From the IMG/VR virus record IMGVR_UViG_3300046167_000543, positions 1-61,602 of that record: a stretch of DNA of 61,602 bases; one strand, given 5' to 3'. Below the pieces are notes generated by a model. The model saw nothing but the letters and a program-made list of their open reading frames with translations. It made no database searches and was not told where the DNA came from. Source of the DNA: a virus. A program made the position numbers and the translations under genes. This document shows positions 1-61,602 of the stretch, one piece after another (positions within the stretch are counted from its first letter, which is position 1; each line of letters begins with the position of its first letter).

Positions 1-137
1 TTATCTAACTTAGCTTGCAGTCTAGCTTTTTCTTTAGCAGCTGCTCTAGCTCTTCTTTTAGCTGAAGACGCGCCAAACAAACCACCTAAAAGACTACCAC
101 CAGCAGATATTAAACCAGCTGTTACTACTCCTGCCAT
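1..137 (-). CDS. Internal virion protein, N-terminal part (gene continues at 61602)
   Basis: First 45 codons of a protein cut by the window edge. It starts at the ATG at 137 with a small/hydrophobic Ala-Gly-rich N terminus (MAGVVTAGLISAGGSLLGG), then a Lys/Arg/Ala-rich stretch. Joining base 1 to base 61602 keeps the frame and reads into the ORF ending at 61065, giving 224 residues. Small proteins with a Gly/Ala-rich start and a Gln/Ala-rich helical body are typical internal or ejection proteins of podovirus-like phages. That role is inferred from the family look and the position beside the giant virion protein. The start overlaps the end of the upstream cupin-like gene by 13 nt. Confidence 0.7.
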   Translation of the reverse strand, partial: MAGVVTAGLISAGGSLLGGLFGASSAKRRARAAAKEKARLQAKLD

Positions 138-583
138 AATTTTTCTTTTTTATTATATTCTTCTATAGTTATAGAGTACAAAGACTCTTCTATTTTTTTT
201 ATTTCTCTTGTGTTCGTAGGGTTTTTATGTATGTTTATGAACACACAATCTTCTTTACAAACTATAAATCTTTTAGCTCCTTTTATAGATTTTTCATAGC
301 AAGGTGCTATATGCTCAACAGTTTCTCCGTTTGTTGTAACTAATATTTTACCAGATAATAAAAACCAAAAATGATCTGTATGATGTATAGCACTTATAAC
401 AAAAGAATTTTTTTTCATTTGCATTTTTCTCATGTACAAACCATCAGAAAAATCATGTGATATAGGTATAAAATCGTTATTCACAAGCTCTTTACCGTTT
501 CCATGTATATGCTCAATGTGGTTGTTTTTTATAAATATATTTTGTAAAGCCTCTAATTTTTGTTTAAAATTATCTAATTCCAT
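125..583 (-). CDS. Cupin-like protein in the virion operon
   Basis: 152 residues. The middle resembles a cupin barrel: a His-rich strand with H67, H68 and H71, then FWFLLSGKILV (about 72-82), then a second half ending with H119. The pattern fits the metal-binding cupin motif H-x3-H...G, but the second cupin motif is weak and no substrate can be named. It sits between the tail/stabilisation genes and the internal virion protein. Its start overlaps the stop of the upstream gene by 1 nt, so it is translationally coupled in the late operon. It could be a virion-associated small-molecule or receptor-binding accessory rather than an enzyme. Confidence 0.55.
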   Translation of the reverse strand: MELDNFKQKLEALQNIFIKNNHIEHIHGNGKELVNNDFIPISHDFSDGLYMRKMQMKKNSFVISAIHHTDHFWFLLSGKILVTTNGETVEHIAPCYEKSIKGAKRFIVCKEDCVFINIHKNPTNTREIKKIEESLYSITIEEYNKKEKLWQE

Positions 584-1989
584 TAATAACTTGATTCTAC
601 ATACTGTGAAGACACGGCGAACAATTCCCTTGTCTTACCTCCAGCTCCAGCTACTTGCGTAGAGCTATCTGTACTTATAGTTACAGTTGCATAGTAACCT
701 TTTACACCCGTCATGTCATCTCCAAAAACAACCTCACCTTTTGTGGGCTGACTGCTATTAACTAAGTTGGCAAAGTATTTTCCTTCTTTGTTATAGAAAC
801 CAGCGTAGTATTGTATACCGTTATCTGTGTAAGCACCTTCGTCATAGCTATAAACTAAGTTTGAAGTATCATTTAATTCAAAGCTTCTAGCAGCGTTAAA
901 ACTGGAAACTTCCCATCCTGTAGACCCTTCGTAGTTAACTGTTTTAAATACTTTAGATAAACTAACTTGGGGGTTAAATACAAACGAAATTAATGAATCA
1001 GAATAAACCCCATAAAATATAGACCTATCGTTATTTTGAAGTGTTTCATTGTTATGACGCCATAACTGACCATCTTTAACGCTAAAATAATTGCTTTGCA
1101 CGCTGAAAGTTTGTTCAGGCTTATATGTATAAAAACTAGTCCAACCTCTAACAGACTCATCAAAAGCTAAAGTTTGGTATGTGTTTACAACATTAGAACC
1201 TTGCAGACTTAATACATATTGTTTAGTATAGATATCCCAAGCGCCAATAGCTTTTCCATTAACAGCTACAGTATCTAAATTTTTAAACTCATCTCTAAAA
1301 TAATCTATCATACCATAGTTAGATATCTCTGTAAGACCATCTTGAGACAAACGCATTACAGCATTTCTATTTTTATCTGTGAAGTATTTTCTATAACCAT
1401 ATACAGCAAAGCTCTCTGGGTTTTTACTAATACCGAAGTTACCAGCATAAGGTACTATCTGACCTATAACTAGGTTAAGCGTACTAACAGCAGATCCTTG
1501 TCCTTCAGCAGAGTATATAGCGTCTTTATCTATTAAAGCTCTACTAACTTTATTCTCTTGGAATATGACAAGGTTTGTGTCTTCAGCATATAGTTTTTGT
1601 ATACTACCATTTGCAGGATCTACAGATCTAGTTATATCTTCACCTACGCTAAATACATTAGTATCATTAACACCTGTTCTAGAATTAAACACACCAGAGT
1701 ATATCATACTGTTGGTTCTAAAAGAAGCGTTGGGTTCTGTTTCTACTAAATACGCTTTAACACCTAAATCAACAATAACGTTATTATAACCTCCTCGTAT
1801 TCTTGCTTCTTCAATAGCCCAGCTATCTGCTTGCACAGCATTAGAAACTTGAGGATAAGCACCCGCTATACCAGTTGGAACACCGGTAGAACCATTCCAG
1901 ACTGGTGGTGTGGTATCATCAGCATTTTGTGGTGCTGTCTTCTTTAATAAAAAAGAGTTAAAATATTTTACTTCTACTATTGCTGCCAT
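583..1989 (-). CDS. Virion structural / tail protein
   Basis: 468 residues, almost entirely predicted beta by eye, with evenly spaced aromatic and Gly-Asn turns as in beta-propeller or tail-hub proteins. There is no signal peptide, membrane segment or recognisable catalytic motif. It lies 3 nt downstream of the 1429-residue tail protein and is probably a partner of it in the tail hub, nozzle or stabilisation complex. The function is inferred from position and composition. I recall similar paired proteins in marine podovirus-like phages, without an experimentally assigned role. Confidence 0.55.
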   Translation of the reverse strand: MAAIVEVKYFNSFLLKKTAPQNADDTTPPVWNGSTGVPTGIAGAYPQVSNAVQADSWAIEEARIRGGYNNVIVDLGVKAYLVETEPNASFRTNSMIYSGVFNSRTGVNDTNVFSVGEDITRSVDPANGSIQKLYAEDTNLVIFQENKVSRALIDKDAIYSAEGQGSAVSTLNLVIGQIVPYAGNFGISKNPESFAVYGYRKYFTDKNRNAVMRLSQDGLTEISNYGMIDYFRDEFKNLDTVAVNGKAIGAWDIYTKQYVLSLQGSNVVNTYQTLAFDESVRGWTSFYTYKPEQTFSVQSNYFSVKDGQLWRHNNETLQNNDRSIFYGVYSDSLISFVFNPQVSLSKVFKTVNYEGSTGWEVSSFNAARSFELNDTSNLVYSYDEGAYTDNGIQYYAGFYNKEGKYFANLVNSSQPTKGEVVFGDDMTGVKGYYATVTISTDSSTQVAGAGGKTRELFAVSSQYVESSY

Positions 1990-1992
1990 AAA

Positions 1993-4900
1993 TTAAGTAT
2001 ATAAACAACGTGTTACAGTTCCAGTTCTTACAGCAGATGTTGTGAATGTAGCTGTATAAGCGCCTTGATTGGTATATTCAGGATTACTAACATCTGTGCT
2101 AGATGTATTTATAAGTTGCATTCTTCTAAATCTTTTTACTGCTTGACTTGTAAATGTAGCTTCGTTAACTAAATTAATATCAGTATAAAGCTGTGTTACG
2201 TACTTAGCAAACGGCTCTGCGGCATAGTAATTAATACCTGTAGATGTAAATGTAGAGCTACAAGTGCTGTTGTTGGCTATTTGATACCTGTAAACACCCG
2301 GGTTAGTACCGTAATCAGGCGCTATATTTGATTCAGGCGCGCTAAAATCATGCACATACACCTTGCTTGTTTTTGTAGTTAAAGGCGTGTTAGGACCACT
2401 AGGACTATTACAGCCAAATCTTTGTTCTAACTCATACGTGCCTGTTTTAGAAAAGAAACCAAACTGTTCCCAAGGGACTTGCCCAATAGATCTACCAACG
2501 TCAAGTCCACCACCACTAAGATTTCCAAGTATTATTCTATATTCTCCATTTGTATTAAACGCAAATACTTGACCTGAATAGGCCGGATCATATGTACCAG
2601 TAGTGCTAGGTGTTCTTCTAACAAGATGAAGACCTTGCGCGAAGTTTTGTGGATCATAATTGCTTGTGTTAGAGATTAAACCTCTATCTGTTCCACCAGG
2701 ATTAAAATCCCAATCCCAAGTACTTGTCGTAGCGCTAGCGTCTAAAGTAGTGTTTGAAATGTCTACAGCTGTTTGCCAGCTAGAGCTTGAATCAGCTCTA
2801 TACTGTATAGCATATCTAGTGTTTAAATGAGGAACTTTATCATCTGCTCTACTAGTAAGTCTTGGTATTAAATTATTTGTGTTTATACCTTCTACCCATA
2901 CGTAAAAAGTACCTCCTGTAGTAAGACCACTACTAAAAGTTTGATTAGTGAAAGTACCACTACCACCTTGAGGCGCTACGTTTGGCTGACAAACATCTCT
3001 CTGTAGAGTTGTATTTGTAGATGTTGGGGCTTGGAAACCAAATAGAAAGTCTCTTGCTGTTATGCCAGATCCACCGTCTAAATAATTAGGTATATTAGCT
3101 GTAAGGTTTGTAGTGTTGTTAGCAAACCAAAGCGCTACACCATCTCCATCGTTTATTGTTTTACCGCCATTAATGTTAAAATCTGAATCTACAGCTGGTT
3201 CAGTAAAGTTAACTATAAAAGTATTTGACACACATAAGCCTCCAGCGTCACAAGTCTGCAAAGTAAATTGTCCAGTTCCTATTGCCGCGGCAGATGTGTT
3301 TATAACTCTAGTACCGTTATTAGTTAAACTAAAAATACCAGCAGGTGACTGAGCTGTTATAGTGTGTGTTATATCATCTGTAGATTGGCCGCCAGAAGGA
3401 TTTGAGCCGTTAACAGCATTTATTGTAGATATAATTATTTCAGTTCCTTTTGTAACATTTATAGGGCTAGTATTTGAAATGCTTGGAGCTATATTTAATA
3501 ATTGACCTTGTTTAGTTATATTAGGATCTGAATCATTAACTCTAAAAGTAAATGTATATACATATCCATTTGGATTATCGTAATAAAAATAAGCTCCACT
3601 AGCTGTTGTTATGTCATAGGTATTAGCTGTACCACCAGTAGTAAATGTAAATTTAGAAGTTACATCGTTTCCAAATTGATCAAAAACACTTTCAAGCGTT
3701 GCAGACGAAGGTGTTATTTGAGCACCAAGATTATTTACAAAATAAAAATCATTAACAATAACAGTTCCAGGTGCATCTGCTTCATCTAAAGTAAAATTCC
3801 AAGCGTCAATACCAGTAGCATCTGTATTGCCACCACTGGAACTAATAGCTGTATTAAGTTCTGATAAAAGACCAGATGTAGCTGTTTCCCAAAATATATC
3901 TAATCTAGATATTGTTGGTAACGTTTCTAAAACATTTAAGTTTTCAAACTTCTCATACACTGTATTAGTATTAGCGTAACCAGCGTTTACAATACCAAAT
4001 TGACCTGCTGGTGTTTGTGAAGTAACAAACTCTGCTATAAAAGGATTTGATTCAGATCTAAAAAAAGAATAATAAGGACTGTTGGTAGAAGTAACAGGTA
4101 TAACGTCGTTAGCTCCAGCTTTAAATTGCAAAACATCAAAAGCATCAAATAAATCTTCAATTTGATTTACAGTAAAAGATTTTCTACCTGGAAAATATTG
4201 TTCGTTACCAACATTGCTAAATTCTATATTAGTGTTAACAACTCTACCAAAAAGTCTAACAGAACTTCTAAACTGTTTATCTTGAGCTCCAACTTCTGTT
4301 AAATCTCTAGGTACTTTATTTATATTGTCATTCAACAATGTTATAAATGTAGCGTTTTGATCTAATGGGTTTGTTGGTGTTGTAACTGGTGGGTTTCCAT
4401 TTGTCCAATATGGCTGACCTTTCATAGCGCCAGCTGTGTATACGTTATAATAATCTTGCTCAACTTGTTTTACTACAATCTTATAACTATACCAACCAAG
4501 TGGTTTATATTCTGTACTACTGGTATCACCATTATATAAACCAGGTATACCGATAGATTCATTTTTATCAAATCCAACTCCTGTAAGAATACTATTAAAA
4601 GAAACTTTTAATGAATCTCCAGCAAAAGTTATTGAATCACTACTAGCGTTATAAGGCAAATAAACAGTATCAGCTCCAAAGCCAGTACCGCTAGATTCGT
4701 TGGTATTACTAGATAATACAGTTGTAGACTGTCTACCATATCTATCTGCTAAAACTATTCCAACTTGATAATTTCTGTTTTGTTTTAAAGTATGGTTTGG
4801 ATATTCTATTCTTGATTTAGCGTTTCCATATGTAGAGCTACTAGTTAATTTTTCAGTAACACCTATTTGGTAATCAATACCAGAAGGTGGCGTATGTTTA

Positions 4901-6282
4901 TTTTGAAAATTACTATAAACAATTCTATTACTAATAACCTCTTGACCAAAAGCTTTTACTGGAATTTTATCGTAAACCCTTGTTATTTCATCAGAAGGTA
5001 AAGTTTTAAAAGGTTTAGTAGATAAATAATTATATTCAAGAACTGTATCTGTACCTGACAAGGTATCAACTTGTACAGTATCAACAACTTGAACAGCTAA
5101 CCCATCTGATTCTTTATACAATATATCTATTTCAGTAATTAAATACTTAGAAGATAAATTAGCTTTTGTATCAGGTAATGGTATTTGCAAACCTATCTGA
5201 GTAACTTTATTTTCCATAAACTCTACAACTGTACTTGTAAAAGTTTGGCGTTCATCACCTTCAATAAAATAACCATCTTGTTTAGGTATAAAAGCAACTT
5301 GCGTAAATGGAGCTAGTATAGAATATTCACCGTCTACAAATTTAAATCTATAACTAAATCTTACAAATTTATCTTCTAAATATTGAGGATCTCCAGAAAA
5401 ATCTGGATTATAATATGGATTTAAAGTAGTTCCGTCTGGTAAAAATTCACTACTTACGTCTTGCATTGTTGTCTGTGTAGCTGCGAGGGTAAAACTTAAT
5501 ATTTCTAAAGCAGATATAGAGTTAGCTTGATTAAACGTTACAACTCCTGTGCTTGGAACAAAGTTAACTACAGTAGTGTTAGCAGCTACACCTGTACCGG
5601 TAACTGTAGCACCAACAAGAATATTACCAGTGGTAGAAGTTATTATAGCTGTTGTTGAATTTGATGTGGTAAGAGTTACAACACCGGTTCCAGTAACTTC
5701 TTCTTGTATTAACTCAATAGGTTTATAAGGATTATACTTAGATACAGATATTTGATCTTCAGTAGTATAATAAGTAGGAGTAGTTAATCTTTGAGGATTT
5801 GCTAAATCAACGTTTATTTTTCTAGGTTGATTTCTATTGTCTGTAAAGAATAATAAATTTTCTAATAAGTTTACACCTATAATAGGTCTATCTTTAGAAA
5901 AATTTAAAAAAGCTCCTTCAACTAATTTTGTTACAATATCTCCTTTTATATTATAAGAAAAAATACAATTTTTAGCTGATGGGTTATATGTTGATTGTCC
6001 TAAAGGTCTCGGATCTTCTTCATCTGTAAAAAATAAATATACAGTATTGTTAAATTCGTCAACAAAATAACCTATACATTCATCTACATCATAACCAGCT
6101 ATAGTTGTAAAGTTAACAACAATTGAGTTGCCAAGTACATTTTCTAACGCGCCGACATCATCACCTTCTGACTTACTAACCTGTATGTTTACAGCGTTGC
6201 GATATTCACCTTGTGGTATAAGTCTAGCATCAAGGTCTTTGTTCATCTTTGATTTGATGAACGCGTTTTTAACTTCAGCCAT
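1993..6282 (-). CDS. Large tail protein (stabilisation/tail-hub type)
   Basis: 1429 residues. The N terminus (MAEVKNAFIKSKMNKDLD, then a region rich in EYRNAVNIQVS-like motifs and GALENVLGN) resembles a family annotated as stabilisation or tail proteins in Bacteroidota and uncultured marine phages. This is recalled similarity. The long middle is Thr/Ser/Asn-rich. The C-terminal third contains Ig/cadherin-like beta segments (around residues 940-1080, with repeated Thr/Ile-rich strands), suited to surface binding. It sits 6 nt after the connector/ring protein gene. The most likely place is the distal tail or tail hub, contacting the cell surface. Confidence 0.6.
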   Translation of the reverse strand: MAEVKNAFIKSKMNKDLDARLIPQGEYRNAVNIQVSKSEGDDVGALENVLGNSIVVNFTTIAGYDVDECIGYFVDEFNNTVYLFFTDEEDPRPLGQSTYNPSAKNCIFSYNIKGDIVTKLVEGAFLNFSKDRPIIGVNLLENLLFFTDNRNQPRKINVDLANPQRLTTPTYYTTEDQISVSKYNPYKPIELIQEEVTGTGVVTLTTSNSTTAIITSTTGNILVGATVTGTGVAANTTVVNFVPSTGVVTFNQANSISALEILSFTLAATQTTMQDVSSEFLPDGTTLNPYYNPDFSGDPQYLEDKFVRFSYRFKFVDGEYSILAPFTQVAFIPKQDGYFIEGDERQTFTSTVVEFMENKVTQIGLQIPLPDTKANLSSKYLITEIDILYKESDGLAVQVVDTVQVDTLSGTDTVLEYNYLSTKPFKTLPSDEITRVYDKIPVKAFGQEVISNRIVYSNFQNKHTPPSGIDYQIGVTEKLTSSSTYGNAKSRIEYPNHTLKQNRNYQVGIVLADRYGRQSTTVLSSNTNESSGTGFGADTVYLPYNASSDSITFAGDSLKVSFNSILTGVGFDKNESIGIPGLYNGDTSSTEYKPLGWYSYKIVVKQVEQDYYNVYTAGAMKGQPYWTNGNPPVTTPTNPLDQNATFITLLNDNINKVPRDLTEVGAQDKQFRSSVRLFGRVVNTNIEFSNVGNEQYFPGRKSFTVNQIEDLFDAFDVLQFKAGANDVIPVTSTNSPYYSFFRSESNPFIAEFVTSQTPAGQFGIVNAGYANTNTVYEKFENLNVLETLPTISRLDIFWETATSGLLSELNTAISSSGGNTDATGIDAWNFTLDEADAPGTVIVNDFYFVNNLGAQITPSSATLESVFDQFGNDVTSKFTFTTGGTANTYDITTASGAYFYYDNPNGYVYTFTFRVNDSDPNITKQGQLLNIAPSISNTSPINVTKGTEIIISTINAVNGSNPSGGQSTDDITHTITAQSPAGIFSLTNNGTRVINTSAAAIGTGQFTLQTCDAGGLCVSNTFIVNFTEPAVDSDFNINGGKTINDGDGVALWFANNTTNLTANIPNYLDGGSGITARDFLFGFQAPTSTNTTLQRDVCQPNVAPQGGSGTFTNQTFSSGLTTGGTFYVWVEGINTNNLIPRLTSRADDKVPHLNTRYAIQYRADSSSSWQTAVDISNTTLDASATTSTWDWDFNPGGTDRGLISNTSNYDPQNFAQGLHLVRRTPSTTGTYDPAYSGQVFAFNTNGEYRIILGNLSGGGLDVGRSIGQVPWEQFGFFSKTGTYELEQRFGCNSPSGPNTPLTTKTSKVYVHDFSAPESNIAPDYGTNPGVYRYQIANNSTCSSTFTSTGINYYAAEPFAKYVTQLYTDINLVNEATFTSQAVKRFRRMQLINTSSTDVSNPEYTNQGAYTATFTTSAVRTGTVTRCLYT

Positions 6283-24891: not shown

Positions 24892-27800
24892 TTATTGGTT
24901 TTCTAAAGTTTGTATTTTTGTTTCTAAACTTTTTATTTTAGCATTTAGCTCTTTTACAGAGTTTATTAAAGCAAAAGTTAATGCGTGGCTATCAAAGTTA
25001 TAAAGTTCTGTATCTTCTTCGTCTTCTTCATTTAGTTTAGCATTATATTTTTTAACCGTTTCCGGCATTACGTCTTTTATTTCTTGCGCTATAACACCAA
25101 TATTGTTTTTGGTTGTAGCGTCAAATCCAGCTTTTCCGTTATAATCAAAAAGCTTAGGCTCTATTTGCAATAGCTCTTGAAGCCCTGTTTCGTAAGGTCG
25201 TATATTAGTTTTTACTCTTTCGTCAGATACTACAGTCCAAGAGCTTGAGGTTGGTTTTGCGGCTGAATTGGTAGATAACTGTAATTGGTATTGCGGGCTG
25301 GTTGTTCCAAGCCCCACTCTTCCAAAAGAATTAATATAAATTGAACTACTCGTACCTTTATTTATTGTAAGAGTATTACCAAAATTAAGTTTTGTTTGTC
25401 CGCTATAGTCATCGTATTCTAAAAAAGCATCTTGGTTTGCATAAGAAAGAACACCGTTATTACCAAAATAAATACCTGATTTTCCAAACGCACCAGTGTT
25501 TAAATTAACAACCGCATTACCGCCATACCCACTTCCGGTAGCGGTTTGTATTCTAAATTCTTCAGTACTGCTGCCGGAGTTAGATGCACTACCTATATGA
25601 AGCTTAACTGTTGGTGCGGTAATCCCAATCCCAACGTTGCCAAAACCGTCAATTCGCATGCTTTCGCTAGAGCCATTATTTCGAAAAAACCTTATGGGTT
25701 TACTCGTCCCGTTAGTTTGCACAACACCTTCCCCCGAGGTGTTTGTTTTTATTACAAAACTACTAGTTGCATCTGTTAAAGTTAGACTAGGCGAGCTACC
25801 AGTAAGAAGTATATCATCTACAACTGTTAGTTTAGACGTAGGGTTCGTCGTTCCAATCCCCACTTTGCCGCTTCGTAAAACCATAGTTTCTACAGCGCTT
25901 GTTGTTTCAAAGGCCATATAACTTGTGCCACCGCTAGTAGATTTTATTTTTAAGCCTTGGTCAAATGCTGTATTGTTATAAGCGCCTGTTTTAATTACCC
26001 AATCATTTTGGTTTGCGGCGTATACTATAGGTGTTATATAAGCGCTACCATTATACACGTGAAGTTTTTCACTTGGATTACGAGTCCCAATCCCAACTTC
26101 TCCAGATGTACTTAAAAACATTCTGCTAGTGGTAGCAGACGTATTTGTTGATTTATTGTCTACTCTAAAATCAAGACCCCAGCCGCCGTCTGAAGTAGTT
26201 TGTGTTATAGCGGCTGTGCCGTGAGTAACACCGCCGTCCCAGCGCCTGAAATCTAACACACCCGCGGTACTAGTACCCATTCTTACGCCTATGGTGTTTG
26301 TGCCTCCCCAAACATAATTTGTCTGTTCTGTTGCAACGTAATTGTCATTACCTTTTATAGTTAATTTTTGGTTTGGGTTTGTTGTGTTAATCCCGACGTT
26401 GCCCTTTAGCTGTGTTGTAACTATACTGTTGTTCCCAAGCACCGCTGTGTTGCTACCAAGGCCAATAGCGTTATAACCTATTACTATTTGGTTTGTTTGG
26501 TTATCACCGCCTGCATCAGAATCAGCTCCTATAAAAACAGAATCATTAGCTGTTACAACATTATTATTACCGCCTCCATATTTTTGCCCAGCAGCATACC
26601 CCACGCCTACGTTTCTTCGCCCGCTCGTTATTTTGTTTAATACTTCTTGGCCTATTCCTGTATTACCGCCAGAACTTGTTGAAGATTGAAGACTGTTAAA
26701 AGCACCTTGGCCTATTGCTGTATTGGAATCTGACTGAGCTTGATATAAAGCGCGGTAACCGACAGCTGTGTTGTTGCTAGAATTTGTAGTAAAAGCCATA
26801 GTTTGGTTACCAACCGCAACATTAAAATCCCCGTCAATGTTGTCGCGCAAAGCTTGGTTGCCTAAAACAGAATTATAATTACCTGTTGTAGTATCTTGCA
26901 TTGCAGCATGCCCAACAGCGGTGTTATATTTAGCACTTGTATTGCTTCTAAATGCAGATGGCCCAATAACTACATTTCTATCACCTGTTGATGTTGAACT
27001 TTGGCCAGTGTTGGAGTCACCGATATAAAGACTTGAATTTGCGCTATTAACTATAACTACTCCTTCTATTTTGGTATTGCCTACTACGTGCAGCTTATGC
27101 GCTGGACTCGTCGTTCCAATTCCGACGTTGCCTTGACCCCCCGCTCTCATGAATTCTTGTCCGCCTTCAGTAAAAATCAACCAATCATTGTTTCCAACAG
27201 CTAACTTTCCATCATCTATAAATTGTATGTTTGTGCTATTTTCACCAATTTTTATTCCGTTAAAATTTGATCTTGCGCCGTCAACATGAAGTATATCCGC
27301 AGGTGCGGTCGTACCAATCCCGACGTTGCCAACAGAATTAATATACATTCTAGAGCCACTACTTCCGCTTTCTAAGTTTAATGTAGCGCTAAAGTTAAGT
27401 GTAGTTGCATTACTGCTGTCTGCATATTTCAAATAAGCGTCTTGGCTAGTATATGTGCTTTGATTTCCAAAATAAATACCTGAAGTTCCAAATGCACCAG
27501 TAACTAAGTTAGCAATAGCGGTACCACCATTACCAGAACTTGTTCCGCTTTGTATTCTAAATTCTTCTGTGGTCACACCACTCGTTGATAAAGTGCCTAT
27601 ATGAAGTTTAGTTGCAGGATTAGTAGTACCAATCCCGACGTTGCCTCCGCCAGTAATAGTCATTTTGTCAGTGTTATTAGTTCTAAATAAAAGAGAACCG
27701 TTTGACATATTTGACAGATAAGCGTTAGTTGAAGAAAAAAACAACATGCCTACGTTAGTGCCATTTTCAACCCATCTTATATAAGGGTTTGCGTTTGCTT

Positions 27801-28215
27801 CTATTTTTAAAACCTCACTAGTAGCTCCTCCTTGTATATGCAAAGGAGCTGTTGGCCCAGTCGTCCCAATCCCGACGTTGCCTGTAGAATCTACAACTAA
27901 TCTATCGTTGGATCCTAAGGCTGAACTTCCTGATATTTTAAACTTATCACTATCGGAATTGTCCACACCTATAGCAAATTTGCTAGAATTACTTAGCTGA
28001 AAATTAATTTGCGAGTCACCCGTCGAAGTATTGTTTATCGACATCCTAGCCTGCGTATTGCTGCATTCTATTAAAAAATCTGTATCAACTTCCGAAGACG
28101 ATACTTGCAGGGGCACTCGTGGTTCTGTAGTCCCTATACCAACCCTATCATTTATTGTATCTACATATAAAACACTACTGTCTACAGCGACATCATTAAG
28201 AAATTTAATTGGCAT
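24892..28215 (-). CDS. Tail fibre with beta-roll repeats and S74 intramolecular chaperone
   Basis: 1107 residues. The N terminus (MPIKFLNDVAVDSS) is a fibre anchor. There are ten GNVGIGTT-type repeats, each starting a block that continues with -P-x-x-x-L-(H/T)-, and a YadA/LbR-like run with NTAVG and NVGVG steps (about 400-590). A C-terminal S74 chaperone domain (about 1000-1107) begins SDERVKTNI and contains NNIGVIAQEI, then ends in a coiled coil. S74 domains trimerise the fibre and cleave themselves off at the Ser of SDER. Two approximately 100-residue modules with EEFRIQ...GAFGxSGIYFGN repeat within the fibre, a sign of modular duplication. Confidence 0.85.
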   Translation of the reverse strand: MPIKFLNDVAVDSSVLYVDTINDRVGIGTTEPRVPLQVSSSEVDTDFLIECSNTQARMSINNTSTGDSQINFQLSNSSKFAIGVDNSDSDKFKISGSSALGSNDRLVVDSTGNVGIGTTGPTAPLHIQGGATSEVLKIEANANPYIRWVENGTNVGMLFFSSTNAYLSNMSNGSLLFRTNNTDKMTITGGGNVGIGTTNPATKLHIGTLSTSGVTTEEFRIQSGTSSGNGGTAIANLVTGAFGTSGIYFGNQSTYTSQDAYLKYADSSNATTLNFSATLNLESGSSGSRMYINSVGNVGIGTTAPADILHVDGARSNFNGIKIGENSTNIQFIDDGKLAVGNNDWLIFTEGGQEFMRAGGQGNVGIGTTSPAHKLHVVGNTKIEGVVIVNSANSSLYIGDSNTGQSSTSTGDRNVVIGPSAFRSNTSAKYNTAVGHAAMQDTTTGNYNSVLGNQALRDNIDGDFNVAVGNQTMAFTTNSSNNTAVGYRALYQAQSDSNTAIGQGAFNSLQSSTSSGGNTGIGQEVLNKITSGRRNVGVGYAAGQKYGGGNNNVVTANDSVFIGADSDAGGDNQTNQIVIGYNAIGLGSNTAVLGNNSIVTTQLKGNVGINTTNPNQKLTIKGNDNYVATEQTNYVWGGTNTIGVRMGTSTAGVLDFRRWDGGVTHGTAAITQTTSDGGWGLDFRVDNKSTNTSATTSRMFLSTSGEVGIGTRNPSEKLHVYNGSAYITPIVYAANQNDWVIKTGAYNNTAFDQGLKIKSTSGGTSYMAFETTSAVETMVLRSGKVGIGTTNPTSKLTVVDDILLTGSSPSLTLTDATSSFVIKTNTSGEGVVQTNGTSKPIRFFRNNGSSESMRIDGFGNVGIGITAPTVKLHIGSASNSGSSTEEFRIQTATGSGYGGNAVVNLNTGAFGKSGIYFGNNGVLSYANQDAFLEYDDYSGQTKLNFGNTLTINKGTSSSIYINSFGRVGLGTTSPQYQLQLSTNSAAKPTSSSWTVVSDERVKTNIRPYETGLQELLQIEPKLFDYNGKAGFDATTKNNIGVIAQEIKDVMPETVKKYNAKLNEEDEEDTELYNFDSHALTFALINSVKELNAKIKSLETKIQTLENQ

Positions 28216-59457: not shown

Positions 59458-60951
59458 TTAATTAGTTGATAATCCAGGTAATGTAGGTCTTTGCTCAAAC
59501 GTTTCTATAGATACGCTTTCTATAGGATCATCACCTACTAATTTTCTTAGTTCCTTTTTCATATCAGCCCCTTCTGGAAGCATGTCTATTAAAGCTCTAA
59601 CTCTAGTTGGATCACTAAGATCAAATATCATGTCATTAGTAAATACAGTTTGCTCACCGCCTGCTGTGCTAGTGCCAGACTTATAACCAAGTTCTATGAT
59701 AGGATAAACTTCACCGCCATCAGCTGGCACAGATCCTGGTGAAACGTTTACTTTTAATACGTCTTTACCACCTATTTTTTTATTTTTAAAATAAGACTCT
59801 GGGTTTTTAAATATATCTGTATAAACCTGTGGCGCTGCTTCAGCTATTTCTTTAGCTGTTTTAGCAGCTTTTCTTTCTGCGGCTGTAAGTTCTTCAGGTG
59901 CTTCAATTTTTGTTTCACCTACTTTGTGTTGTTGTTGTATGTAGTTACTTAAACCATACTCAACGTACATATCTATAAATAGAGCTTCTTGTTCTTTAGT
60001 TAAAGTTTTTTCGTAATCCCAAGGAAAATCTCCTTTTGGATCTAAAATATTATTCCAAAAAGATATAGCTTCTACTCCTGGCATTTTTAGTAAAGCCGCG
60101 GCATCCGCTTTTAAATCTACACCAACGGGTGAAGAAGCAAGCGCGCCTTTATTTATTTCTTTATACAAAGTAACAACACCATTTTTGTCTGGTTCACTTT
60201 GTTTAACTTCGTCACTAAGATACTTAGGGTCTAATATTTTATTTTCTATATTATTAGGATCTGGAATCATAGATAACTTAGCAGCCTCTTGAAAATTACT
60301 AGTTTCATCTGGAATTTTAGCACCAAAAACAATGCCATATTCTTGTTCTATATGTTTTTTAATAGAATTTGTACTATATTGTTTTCCGTTTATTTCAAAA
60401 GCAGGAACTAAAGCTCCGCCTTCTTCAACTACAGTGTAGCTCCTAGTACCTTTAACGTTGTCTAACCAAGTTAGAGCAGCTCGTAAATTATCTCCATCGC
60501 TAGCTTTTAAATCTAAACCACCCATGCCTTTTATACCGGCAGCTTCTCTTGTTTGTTCAGCGGCGTCTACTAGCATAGATATGCCTTCGTTAGCCATTTG
60601 AGGTAAGGCTAATATTTGAGCTTGTCTTTTTTTATCTAAAGTAGGGTTTTCACTTGTACCAAAAGCAAGACGTTGCGCAAGTTGAGAATATTCATCTATG
60701 TAAGGTTCAAAACCTTTATAAAGATCTAAGCCACCATTAGAAACAGCAGCTTTTGTAAAGTCAGTTCTAAGCTTTAAGCTTTCTTTTTCAATACCAGATA
60801 ATATAGTTTCATTTTTTTTAACTCTTTCAGCATTGCTTTTTCGTATAGCCTGCACATTAGCCCTACCCTCTGCAGATATTTTGTTTATCATATCTACATA
60901 GTACTTACCTGATTGCGTATCTATATATTGTTTTGGGTTTCTATAACTCAT
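59458..60951 (-). CDS. Internal virion protein
   Basis: 497 residues, mainly helical, with Lys/Ala-rich N terminus (NKISAEGRANVQAIRKSNAERV). Preceding the giant protein in the operon and following the 224-residue junction protein, it matches the middle of the three internal-core proteins of podoviruses (gp14/gp15/gp16-like order). No catalytic motif seen. Confidence 0.65.
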   Translation of the reverse strand: MSYRNPKQYIDTQSGKYYVDMINKISAEGRANVQAIRKSNAERVKKNETILSGIEKESLKLRTDFTKAAVSNGGLDLYKGFEPYIDEYSQLAQRLAFGTSENPTLDKKRQAQILALPQMANEGISMLVDAAEQTREAAGIKGMGGLDLKASDGDNLRAALTWLDNVKGTRSYTVVEEGGALVPAFEINGKQYSTNSIKKHIEQEYGIVFGAKIPDETSNFQEAAKLSMIPDPNNIENKILDPKYLSDEVKQSEPDKNGVVTLYKEINKGALASSPVGVDLKADAAALLKMPGVEAISFWNNILDPKGDFPWDYEKTLTKEQEALFIDMYVEYGLSNYIQQQHKVGETKIEAPEELTAAERKAAKTAKEIAEAAPQVYTDIFKNPESYFKNKKIGGKDVLKVNVSPGSVPADGGEVYPIIELGYKSGTSTAGGEQTVFTNDMIFDLSDPTRVRALIDMLPEGADMKKELRKLVGDDPIESVSIETFEQRPTLPGLSTN

Positions 60952-60957
60952 AATTTT

Positions 60958-61074
60958 TTATTGTGTAAACAAAGGGTTTGTTACTTTAAAAGCATCGTTC
61001 AACTGACTATTAGTATATGCTGAAGTTACATTGCTTGCTTGCGGTCTTACACTAGGAGCTGCCGTTAGCCCTTT
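60958..61074 (-). other. Candidate -1 programmed frameshift site and extension
   Basis: On the minus strand, the junction gene reads CCA A-AAG-GGC-TAA. The heptamer AAAGGGC (61068-61074) is a canonical X XXY YYZ slippery site placed exactly at the stop. A -1 slip continues as LTAAPSVRPQASNVTSAY and on to a stop at 60958-60960, 36 extra residues, 6 nt before the next gene. That frame has no ATG of its own near its start, so only a shift would translate it. I see no strong downstream stem. Confidence 0.65.
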
Positions 61075-61602
61075 GGCCCCATAGCAGCTGATAATCCACT
61101 AGTTATACCACCTATAGCACTTGTCCACGCGCCTGCTTTATCTGCATTAGCTTGAGCTTCTCTAGCTTCTGATCCTGAAAGCTGAGCTGAAACCCTGTCT
61201 AATTGCTGCATCTCTCTATTTTCTTGTGCTCCGAATACAAATTGTTTACCTGATACATCAGCTTGTTGTAATCTTTGTGCTTCAGACATTTTTTGTTGTT
61301 GCAATTGTACCTCGCCTTGAGCTCTAAGCTTTTCGTTTTGGGCTTCTTGCTGTTCAATACTAGCTGATACTCCACGTTTGCTTTGCAGTGCTGCTTGAGC
61401 GAGAGCAGTAGCACCTCCAGCAGAAGCTCCAGTTGCTCTAATAGTATCTAATGTATTGGCTAAAGAAATGTCAGCTTGTTCCGACTGATTTCTAGCGGCC
61501 TGCGTAGCTACTCCTAAATTATCATAAGGATTTGTTATCATAGAAGATAAATCCTCTACGTCTTCGTATGGATTTATTATCTCTTGCCTATTTTTTTCTA
61601 AA
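61065..61602 (-). CDS. Internal virion protein, main part (continues at 137)
   Basis: In-frame continuation of the gene beginning at 137 when the ends are joined. An internal ATG at 61541 starts MITNPYDNLGVATQAA. The body is Ala/Gln-rich and helical (LANTLDTIRATGAS, then ASIEQQEAQNEKLRAQGEV), typical of small internal-core proteins next to the giant ejection protein. Stop at 61065-61067, directly preceded by the slippery site described separately. Confidence 0.75.
   Translation of the reverse strand, partial: LEKNRQEIINPYEDVEDLSSMITNPYDNLGVATQAARNQSEQADISLANTLDTIRATGASAGGATALAQAALQSKRGVSASIEQQEAQNEKLRAQGEVQLQQQKMSEAQRLQQADVSGKQFVFGAQENREMQQLDRVSAQLSGSEAREAQANADKAGAWTSAIGGITSGLSAAMGPKG

What the first reader, a model, noticed from the sequence alone, without database searches (positions are those of the whole stretch)
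60958..61074. Canonical -1 frameshift site at the end of an internal virion gene
The heptamer A AAG GGC lies right before the TAA of the 224-residue protein, and the -1 frame is open for 36 more codons ending 6 nt before the next gene. The spacing fits the operon, so the gene may make two C termini in a fixed ratio, as tail assembly genes of other phages do.
Basis: partly seen in the sequence, partly recalled or inferred. Interest (0 to 1): 0.8.

Follow-up and report, generated by a model that had tools for sequence, protein, structure and literature searches.

The report
Frameshift-made tail on phage ejection-type protein
In this virus of marine Bacteroidota-type bacteria, a small protein that is probably packed inside the particle appears to be made in two lengths because some ribosomes slip back one base just before the stop codon; the same arrangement recurs, with many different added tails, across a large group of related uncultured viruses and seems not to have been described for this protein.

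Summary
A AAG GGC lies in frame directly before TAA of a 224-aa gene (minus strand; the gene crosses the circular record's ends), and the -1 frame is open for 36 codons, ending 6 nt before the next gene. Alone this is weak (shuffles give such an open frame 5% of the time). Relatives make it strong. Of 233 distinct gene ends, 31 have the next long ORF called >=45 nt away. 27 of these carry an X XXY YYZ heptamer at or one codon before the stop, against 7 of 202 with no spacer (p 9e-25; phylogenetically independent pairs about 11:0). Three more have shifty tetramers touching the stop; the last is an ORF-calling artefact. The tails are conserved as protein in the -1 frame (dN<dS), and a blind scan for the window tail's motif found it only in that frame. 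Relatives carry such tails in frame 0, and many sites have a 3' hairpin, though the window's does not. I conclude that this is programmed -1 ribosomal frameshifting in an ejection-type virion protein of flavophage-related podoviruses. It is unannotated and, as far as I could search, undescribed. Tails seem to be swapped as cassettes. Frameshift efficiency and the tail's function are unknown.

The parts
61065..61602 (-). 3' part (178 codons + stop) of the 224-aa ejection-type virion protein gene, zero frame
   Evidence: rest of the gene at 1-137 because the record is circularly permuted
1..137 (-). 5' part of the same gene (MAGVVTAGLISAGGSLLGGLFGASSAKRRARAAAKEKARLQAKLD..), codon 46 straddles the record ends
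   Evidence: agrees with near-identical contig L001
61068..61074 (-). -1 slippery heptamer A AAG GGC, directly before the stop
   Evidence: equivalent sites in relatives
61065..61067 (-). zero-frame stop TAA directly after the heptamer
60958..61068 (-). -1 frame extension, 36 codons (LTAAPSVRPQASNVTSAYTNSQLNDAFKVTNPLFTQ) plus stop TAA at 60958-60960
   Evidence: motif conserved
59458..60951 (-). next gene, 497 aa (MSYRNPKQYIDTQSG..), position of the second ejection-type protein
   Evidence: same order in elemo phage gp20-gp19-gp18
50705..59446 (-). 2913-aa giant protein, position of the third (gp16-like) internal protein
   Evidence: relatives' giant virion protein

Best explanation
Programmed -1 ribosomal frameshifting. 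Most ribosomes stop at TAA and release the 224-aa protein. A fraction slip back one base with tRNA-Lys and tRNA-Gly on A AAG GGC, re-pair as AAA GGG, pass the stop and add 36 residues that end in FKVTNPLFTQ, giving a 260-aa form. The protein is the first of three late genes (about 220 aa, about 500 aa, a giant) whose counterparts in cultured flavophages are mostly annotated as virion structural proteins; by size, order and N-terminal hydrophobic helix it is probably the smallest ejection (internal) protein. Shown by sequence and comparison: the site, the open frame, the tail-to-site association, coding-type conservation of the tail, and in-frame versions of tails in relatives. Inferred: that slippage happens, how often, that both forms enter the virion, and that the tail is a short docking segment needed on only some copies. 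Relatives with closely similar bodies but unrelated tails suggest that the site is a fixed acceptor for exchangeable tails.
For: (1) 233 distinct gene ends: heptamer at 0-1 codon before the stop in 27/31 with a spacer to the next gene vs 7/202 without, Fisher p 9e-25. The four exceptions are A AAG TAA, T TTT TAG, T TTT TAA (single-tRNA shifty sites) and one ORF that runs into the next gene. (2) On the tree the state changes at least 13 times on supported branches; independent pairs go the same way 10.9:0.2, median sign test p 0.001. (3) With C-terminal dipeptide held constant (GK, GN, KG, KK, KN): 26/26 tailed vs 5/34 tail-less have the heptamer, p 2.5e-12. (4) Blind DNA scan of 2.9 million viral contigs for FKVTNPLF: all five hits in this gene family put it in the -1 frame behind a shift site. 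(5) Tail pairs: dN 0.06/dS 0.53 (L073/L312), pN 0.20/pS 0.74 (window/L143); differences by codon position in the -1 frame 53/31/77, p 5e-5. (6) Same tail in frame 0 in a relative: L172 (-1, GGGAAAG TAA) vs L169 (frame 0, PPTEVGETWGSYTPTL); L060 FAVTNPLFD. (7) 3' hairpins: mean z -1.0 vs +0.14 in tail-less relatives, p 3e-7. (8) Genomes from another collection: of 10 loci the single one with a spacer has GGGAAAT TAG and a 31-codon tail.
Against: No protein or ribosome data. AAAGGGC itself as a tail-bearing site is seen only in the window, is not among the efficient bacterial heptamers named in the recoding review (PMC5009743), and its second tRNA (Gly on GGC to GGG) re-pairs imperfectly. The window's own 49 nt downstream show no significant hairpin (z +0.8). 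Most family members (about 87%) have no such tail, so it is dispensable for the family. One pair (L250/L286) is too close to show dN<dS. Protein-guided alignment of tails slightly favours the codon-position result.
Confidence: 0.87

Rival explanations
1. Chance: a heptamer and an open alternate frame that mean nothing, in an ordinary intergenic spacer.
For: In the window alone AAAGGGC is not enriched and a 36-codon open -1 frame arises in 5% of shuffles.
Against: Association across the family, conserved tails in the -1 frame, window tail 73% identical to L143's although the bodies are only 59% identical.
Confidence: 0.04
2. Sequencing or assembly indels, or decayed genes, broke an originally in-frame tail.
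For: L151 and L228 are almost the same sequence and differ by A9 vs A10 at the junction, so that one pair may be an indel or a homopolymer slip.
Against: Some thirty distinct sequences from different metagenomes, identical copies in two assemblies (L076/L077), always a shift site and always the -1 frame with the stop touching or one codon after it; indels would hit both other frames and random places.
Confidence: 0.03
3. The tail is a separate small ORF translated by reinitiation or coupling, not fused.
For: L010 has an ATGA overlap of stop and a tail ATG; the window tail has possible starts only at codons 23 and 33.
Against: Most tails have no ATG/GTG/TTG at or near the start, the window tail's conserved N-terminal part lies before its only internal starts, and L169 and L060 carry such tails fused in frame 0.
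Confidence: 0.03
4. Polymerase (transcriptional) slippage rather than ribosomal slippage makes the -1 product.
For: A few members have A6-A10 runs (L151, L182, L206, L250).
Against: Most sites are GGGAAAN or AAAGGGC with no run longer than 5, the X XXY YYZ register is kept, and many have a hairpin 3' at ribosomal spacing.
Confidence: 0.03

Closest known systems
Phage T7/T3 gene 10 major capsid protein, 10A/10B (-1 frameshift near the stop)
   Same: -1 slip just before the stop gives a minor C-terminally extended form of a virion protein; podovirus (PMC5009743).
   Different: Major capsid protein, not an internal or ejection-type protein; in T7 the X_XX part is G_GU and a distant stimulator is involved; no homology of gene or tail known.
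Kuravirus (phiEco32-like) major capsid protein frameshift at GGGAAAG
   Same: Same heptamer as many relatives here, near the natural stop, podovirus, two forms (PMC9965538).
   Different: Capsid protein; extension of hundreds of residues; unrelated gene.
Lambda G/GT tail assembly chaperones
   Same: GGGAAAG-type -1 site at the end of a late gene, two products in a set ratio (PMC5009743).
   Different: Non-virion chaperone of long-tailed phages; here a virion-type gene of a short-tailed phage group with a short, probably disordered tail.
PHROG 13764 virion structural protein (elemo phage gp20, Cellulophaga phi38:1 gp099, phi19:3 gp126)
   Same: Same family by profile comparison (probability 96%), same position before the medium and giant genes; elemo gp20 ends ..TPTTPLFQ in frame 0.
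   Different: The cultured members have no spacer and no tail-bearing frameshift site.
T7 gp14 / P22 gp7 ejection proteins
   Same: Size, gene order (small, medium, large) and N-terminal hydrophobic helix; predicted all-helical.
   Different: No detectable sequence homology or fold match; the ejection-protein review mentions no frameshift (PMC8954989).

Membership tests
Programmed -1 ribosomal frameshifting (tandem slippage) | X XXY YYZ heptamer in the zero-frame register, upstream of or at the zero-frame stop | tested here: met
   A AAG GGC TAA; 27/31 relatives with a spacer
Programmed -1 ribosomal frameshifting (tandem slippage) | -1 frame open from the site and conserved as protein | tested here: met
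Programmed -1 ribosomal frameshifting (tandem slippage) | 3' stimulatory structure (usual, not obligatory) | tested here: inconclusive
   met for many relatives, not for the window itself; the review notes that some tailed-phage sites seem to use no stimulator
Programmed -1 ribosomal frameshifting (tandem slippage) | fusion product made at a reproducible ratio | not testable with these tools
   needs reporter or mass spectrometry
Lambda G/GT tail assembly chaperone | homologous or syntenic with chaperone genes before a tape measure gene | tested here: not met
   podovirus-type gene order; no PHROG or Pfam chaperone match
PHROG 13764 virion structural protein | sequence homology | tested here: met
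   family profile vs four members: probability 96%, E 3e-9; single-sequence search of the window protein finds nothing
T7 gp14 / P22 gp7 ejection protein | sequence or fold homology | tested here: not met
T7 gp14 / P22 gp7 ejection protein | packaged inside the virion and ejected | not testable with these tools
   relatives annotated as virion structural proteins; location inside the head is inference

The most novel reading that the evidence does not exclude
The frameshift site is a fixed docking point behind which unrelated C-terminal tails are exchanged between phages. A minority of the ejection-type subunits thereby carries a fast-changing tail that dictates which partner (next ejection protein, portal, or a host envelope part) the complex engages. 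L429, L430 and L451 (bodies 77-87% identical) have the same kind of site but three dissimilar tails, and L429's tail is shared with L042 (body only 48% identical).
Probability: 0.4. Interest if true: 0.75.

Novelty: new variant of a known kind. Interest (0 to 1): 0.62.

Why it matters
It adds a new gene class, an ejection-type virion protein, to the short list of phage structural genes made in two forms by frameshifting. It does so in Bacteroidota-type phages, where recoding appears little studied. With some thirty natural variants (heptamer types, with and without hairpin, tails in -1 or frame 0, tails absent), it offers a ready comparative set for how shift sites arise, strengthen and are lost. 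Gene callers working with plain ORFs miss the tails, so annotations of this phage group lack a conserved protein segment. It also makes a concrete question testable: why a genome-delivery complex would need two kinds of the same subunit.

Tried and rejected
Pfam, PHROGs and PDB sequence searches with the window proteins or family profile: no match. tblastn of the gene and its 497-aa neighbour against named phages: none; the group was placed by portal and terminase instead. Foldseek of the AlphaFold model (mean pLDDT 74, pTM 0.41, helical, tail disordered): no significant match in PDB or viral models. A stop-codon readthrough reading was rejected: from the sequence, frame 0 after TAA closes after 5 codons (CGG CAG CTC CTA GTG TAA). 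Looking for a window hairpin with longer stretches gave mainly a stem that encloses the heptamer itself (AGCTGC..GCAGCT), which a ribosome on the site would have melted. Consensus folding of the window's sub-group gave no real structure. Whether tail presence follows the type of the next gene: no clear relation. L151 was left out of the tree test as an ambiguous homopolymer case.

Full report
What was checked. The finding places A AAG GGC directly before the TAA of a minus-strand gene, with an open -1 frame up to 6 nt before the next gene. Every coordinate holds. In isolation the feature is not significant: the heptamer is not enriched and a 36-codon -1 frame survives 5% of dinucleotide shuffles. 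It is the only ORF of 74 in the window with a heptamer within a codon of its stop.

Which virus. Portal and terminase are 42% and 45% identical to Flavobacterium elemo phages and 51% and 64% to an environmental podovirus record, with weaker matches to Cellulophaga and Tenacibaculum phages among others. Relatives in assembled genomes are mostly in Bacteroidota bins. In elemo phage gp20-gp19-gp18 and in Cellulophaga phi38:1 gp099-gp101 the same small / medium / giant gene order is annotated mostly as virion structural proteins, in part by similarity to other phages. A profile of the window's family matches these small proteins with probability 96%. T7 gp14 and P22 gp7, the classical small ejection proteins, are not detectably homologous, so 'ejection-type' rests on gene order, size, the N-terminal hydrophobic helix and predicted helical fold.

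Comparative test. Six protein-guided scans of the viral contig collection plus a motif scan gave 233 distinct gene ends with known downstream context. In 202 the next gene follows at once; in 31 the next long ORF is called 45 nt or more away. A canonical heptamer at or one codon before the stop is present in 27 of the 31 and in 7 of the 202 (p 9e-25). Of the four exceptions, three have single-tRNA shifty sites touching the stop (A AAG TAA, T TTT TAG, T TTT TAA) and also long -1 tails; the fourth, L263, is an ORF that runs on into the next gene's start and so has no real spacer. The heptamers are mostly GGGAAAG/A/C/T, also AAAAAAG and, in the window, AAAGGGC. A phylogeny of 230 sequences needs at least 13 changes of state on supported branches, and in independent pairs the heptamer goes with the spacer about 11 to 0. 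Because many short C termini end in Gly-Lys or Lys-Gly anyway, I repeated the test within those dipeptides: 26 of 26 tailed and 5 of 34 tail-less genes have the heptamer. The ten loci from a different collection (genome bins) behaved as predicted: the only one with a spacer has GGGAAAT TAG and a 31-codon tail.

The tail is protein. The window's tail shares FKVTNPLF with L143/L318, L292 and L394, and similar endings with L042 and L429. A blind back-translated DNA scan for FKVTNPLF over all viral contigs gave eight places; the five in this gene family are all in the -1 frame directly after this gene. A second blind scan (KPNDTVGFY) found only the known -1 tails. In the -1 frame the tails evolve like coding sequence. 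The tail of L172 appears in frame 0, fused, in its relative L169, and L060 carries FAVTNPLFD in frame 0; the cultured elemo gp20 ends TPTTPLFQ. Most tails lack any start codon near their beginning.

Stimulators. Many sites have a compact G+C-rich hairpin starting about 4-8 nt after the heptamer (for example L172, L446, L312, L430), and as a set they are more stable than matched positions in tail-less relatives (p 3e-7). The window and several of its tail relatives (L436, L292, L153) do not. In that sub-group the second tail codon ends in G in every case (ACG, AAG, AAG, GGG, AAG, GGG) although such codons are rare in this genome, which hints at an RNA-level constraint that I could not resolve.

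Mechanism and function. The best reading is programmed -1 ribosomal frameshifting that gives a minor, C-terminally extended form of an ejection-type protein. That the slip occurs, its rate, and incorporation of both forms into virions are inferred. The tail is predicted disordered (the frame-0 example) with a short conserved end, as expected for a docking peptide; the partner is unknown. In L429, L430 and L451 the bodies are 77-87% identical but the tails dissimilar, while L429's tail resembles that of the distant L042, so tails appear to be exchanged behind a kept shift site.

Relation to known cases. Frameshift-extended virion proteins are known for the T7/T3 major capsid protein, kuravirus capsid proteins and Ig-domain extensions, and -1 sites for lambda-type tail chaperones (PMC5009743, PMC9965538). 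A review of ejection proteins does not mention frameshifting (PMC8954989), the flavophage isolation paper does not (PMC8776804), and searches of the open library found no description of this case. Subscription papers were not searchable, so 'undescribed' is limited to that.

Weak points. No experimental data; AAAGGGC is a singleton among the tail-bearing sites and of unknown strength; the window lacks an obvious stimulator; the Fisher value ignores relatedness (the pair test corrects for it); tails are short, so single-pair rates are rough.

Noticed in passing
window 61035-61066 (-), and L436, L292, L143, L010, L153, L398, L470 downstream of the stop: Shared nucleotides GGC-N5-7-(CTAGTGTAAG or CCAATAAG)-NCC start about 5 nt after the shift site; codon 2 of the tail always ends in a rare G. 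It looks like an RNA-level element without a clear hairpin.
   Followed up: partly
L429, L430, L451 gene ends: Bodies 77-87% identical, same kind of shift site, dissimilar tails; L429's tail is shared with the distant L042. This suggests tail cassette exchange.
   Followed up: partly
window 583-1989 (-) and 1993-6282 (-): Two adjacent genes match different parts (about 919-1258 and 1-180) of one 1474-position virion protein family, PHROG 14478, so the protein may be split or rearranged here.
   Followed up: no
L151 and L228 (junction A9 vs A10): Nearly identical contigs in which the tail is in the -1 frame or in frame 0 depending on one A in a homopolymer; either an indel error or a site that also allows transcriptional slippage.
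   Followed up: partly
L474, L477 (PBPJ01), L476 (JABSQH01): Contigs of this phage group sit in bins labelled Woesearchaeota and Ilumatobacteraceae; probably binning errors.
   Followed up: no
window 25279-27901 (-): Five spaced copies of a 64-nt repeat inside the 1107-aa gene 24892-28215, perhaps repeats of a tail-fibre-like protein.
   Followed up: no
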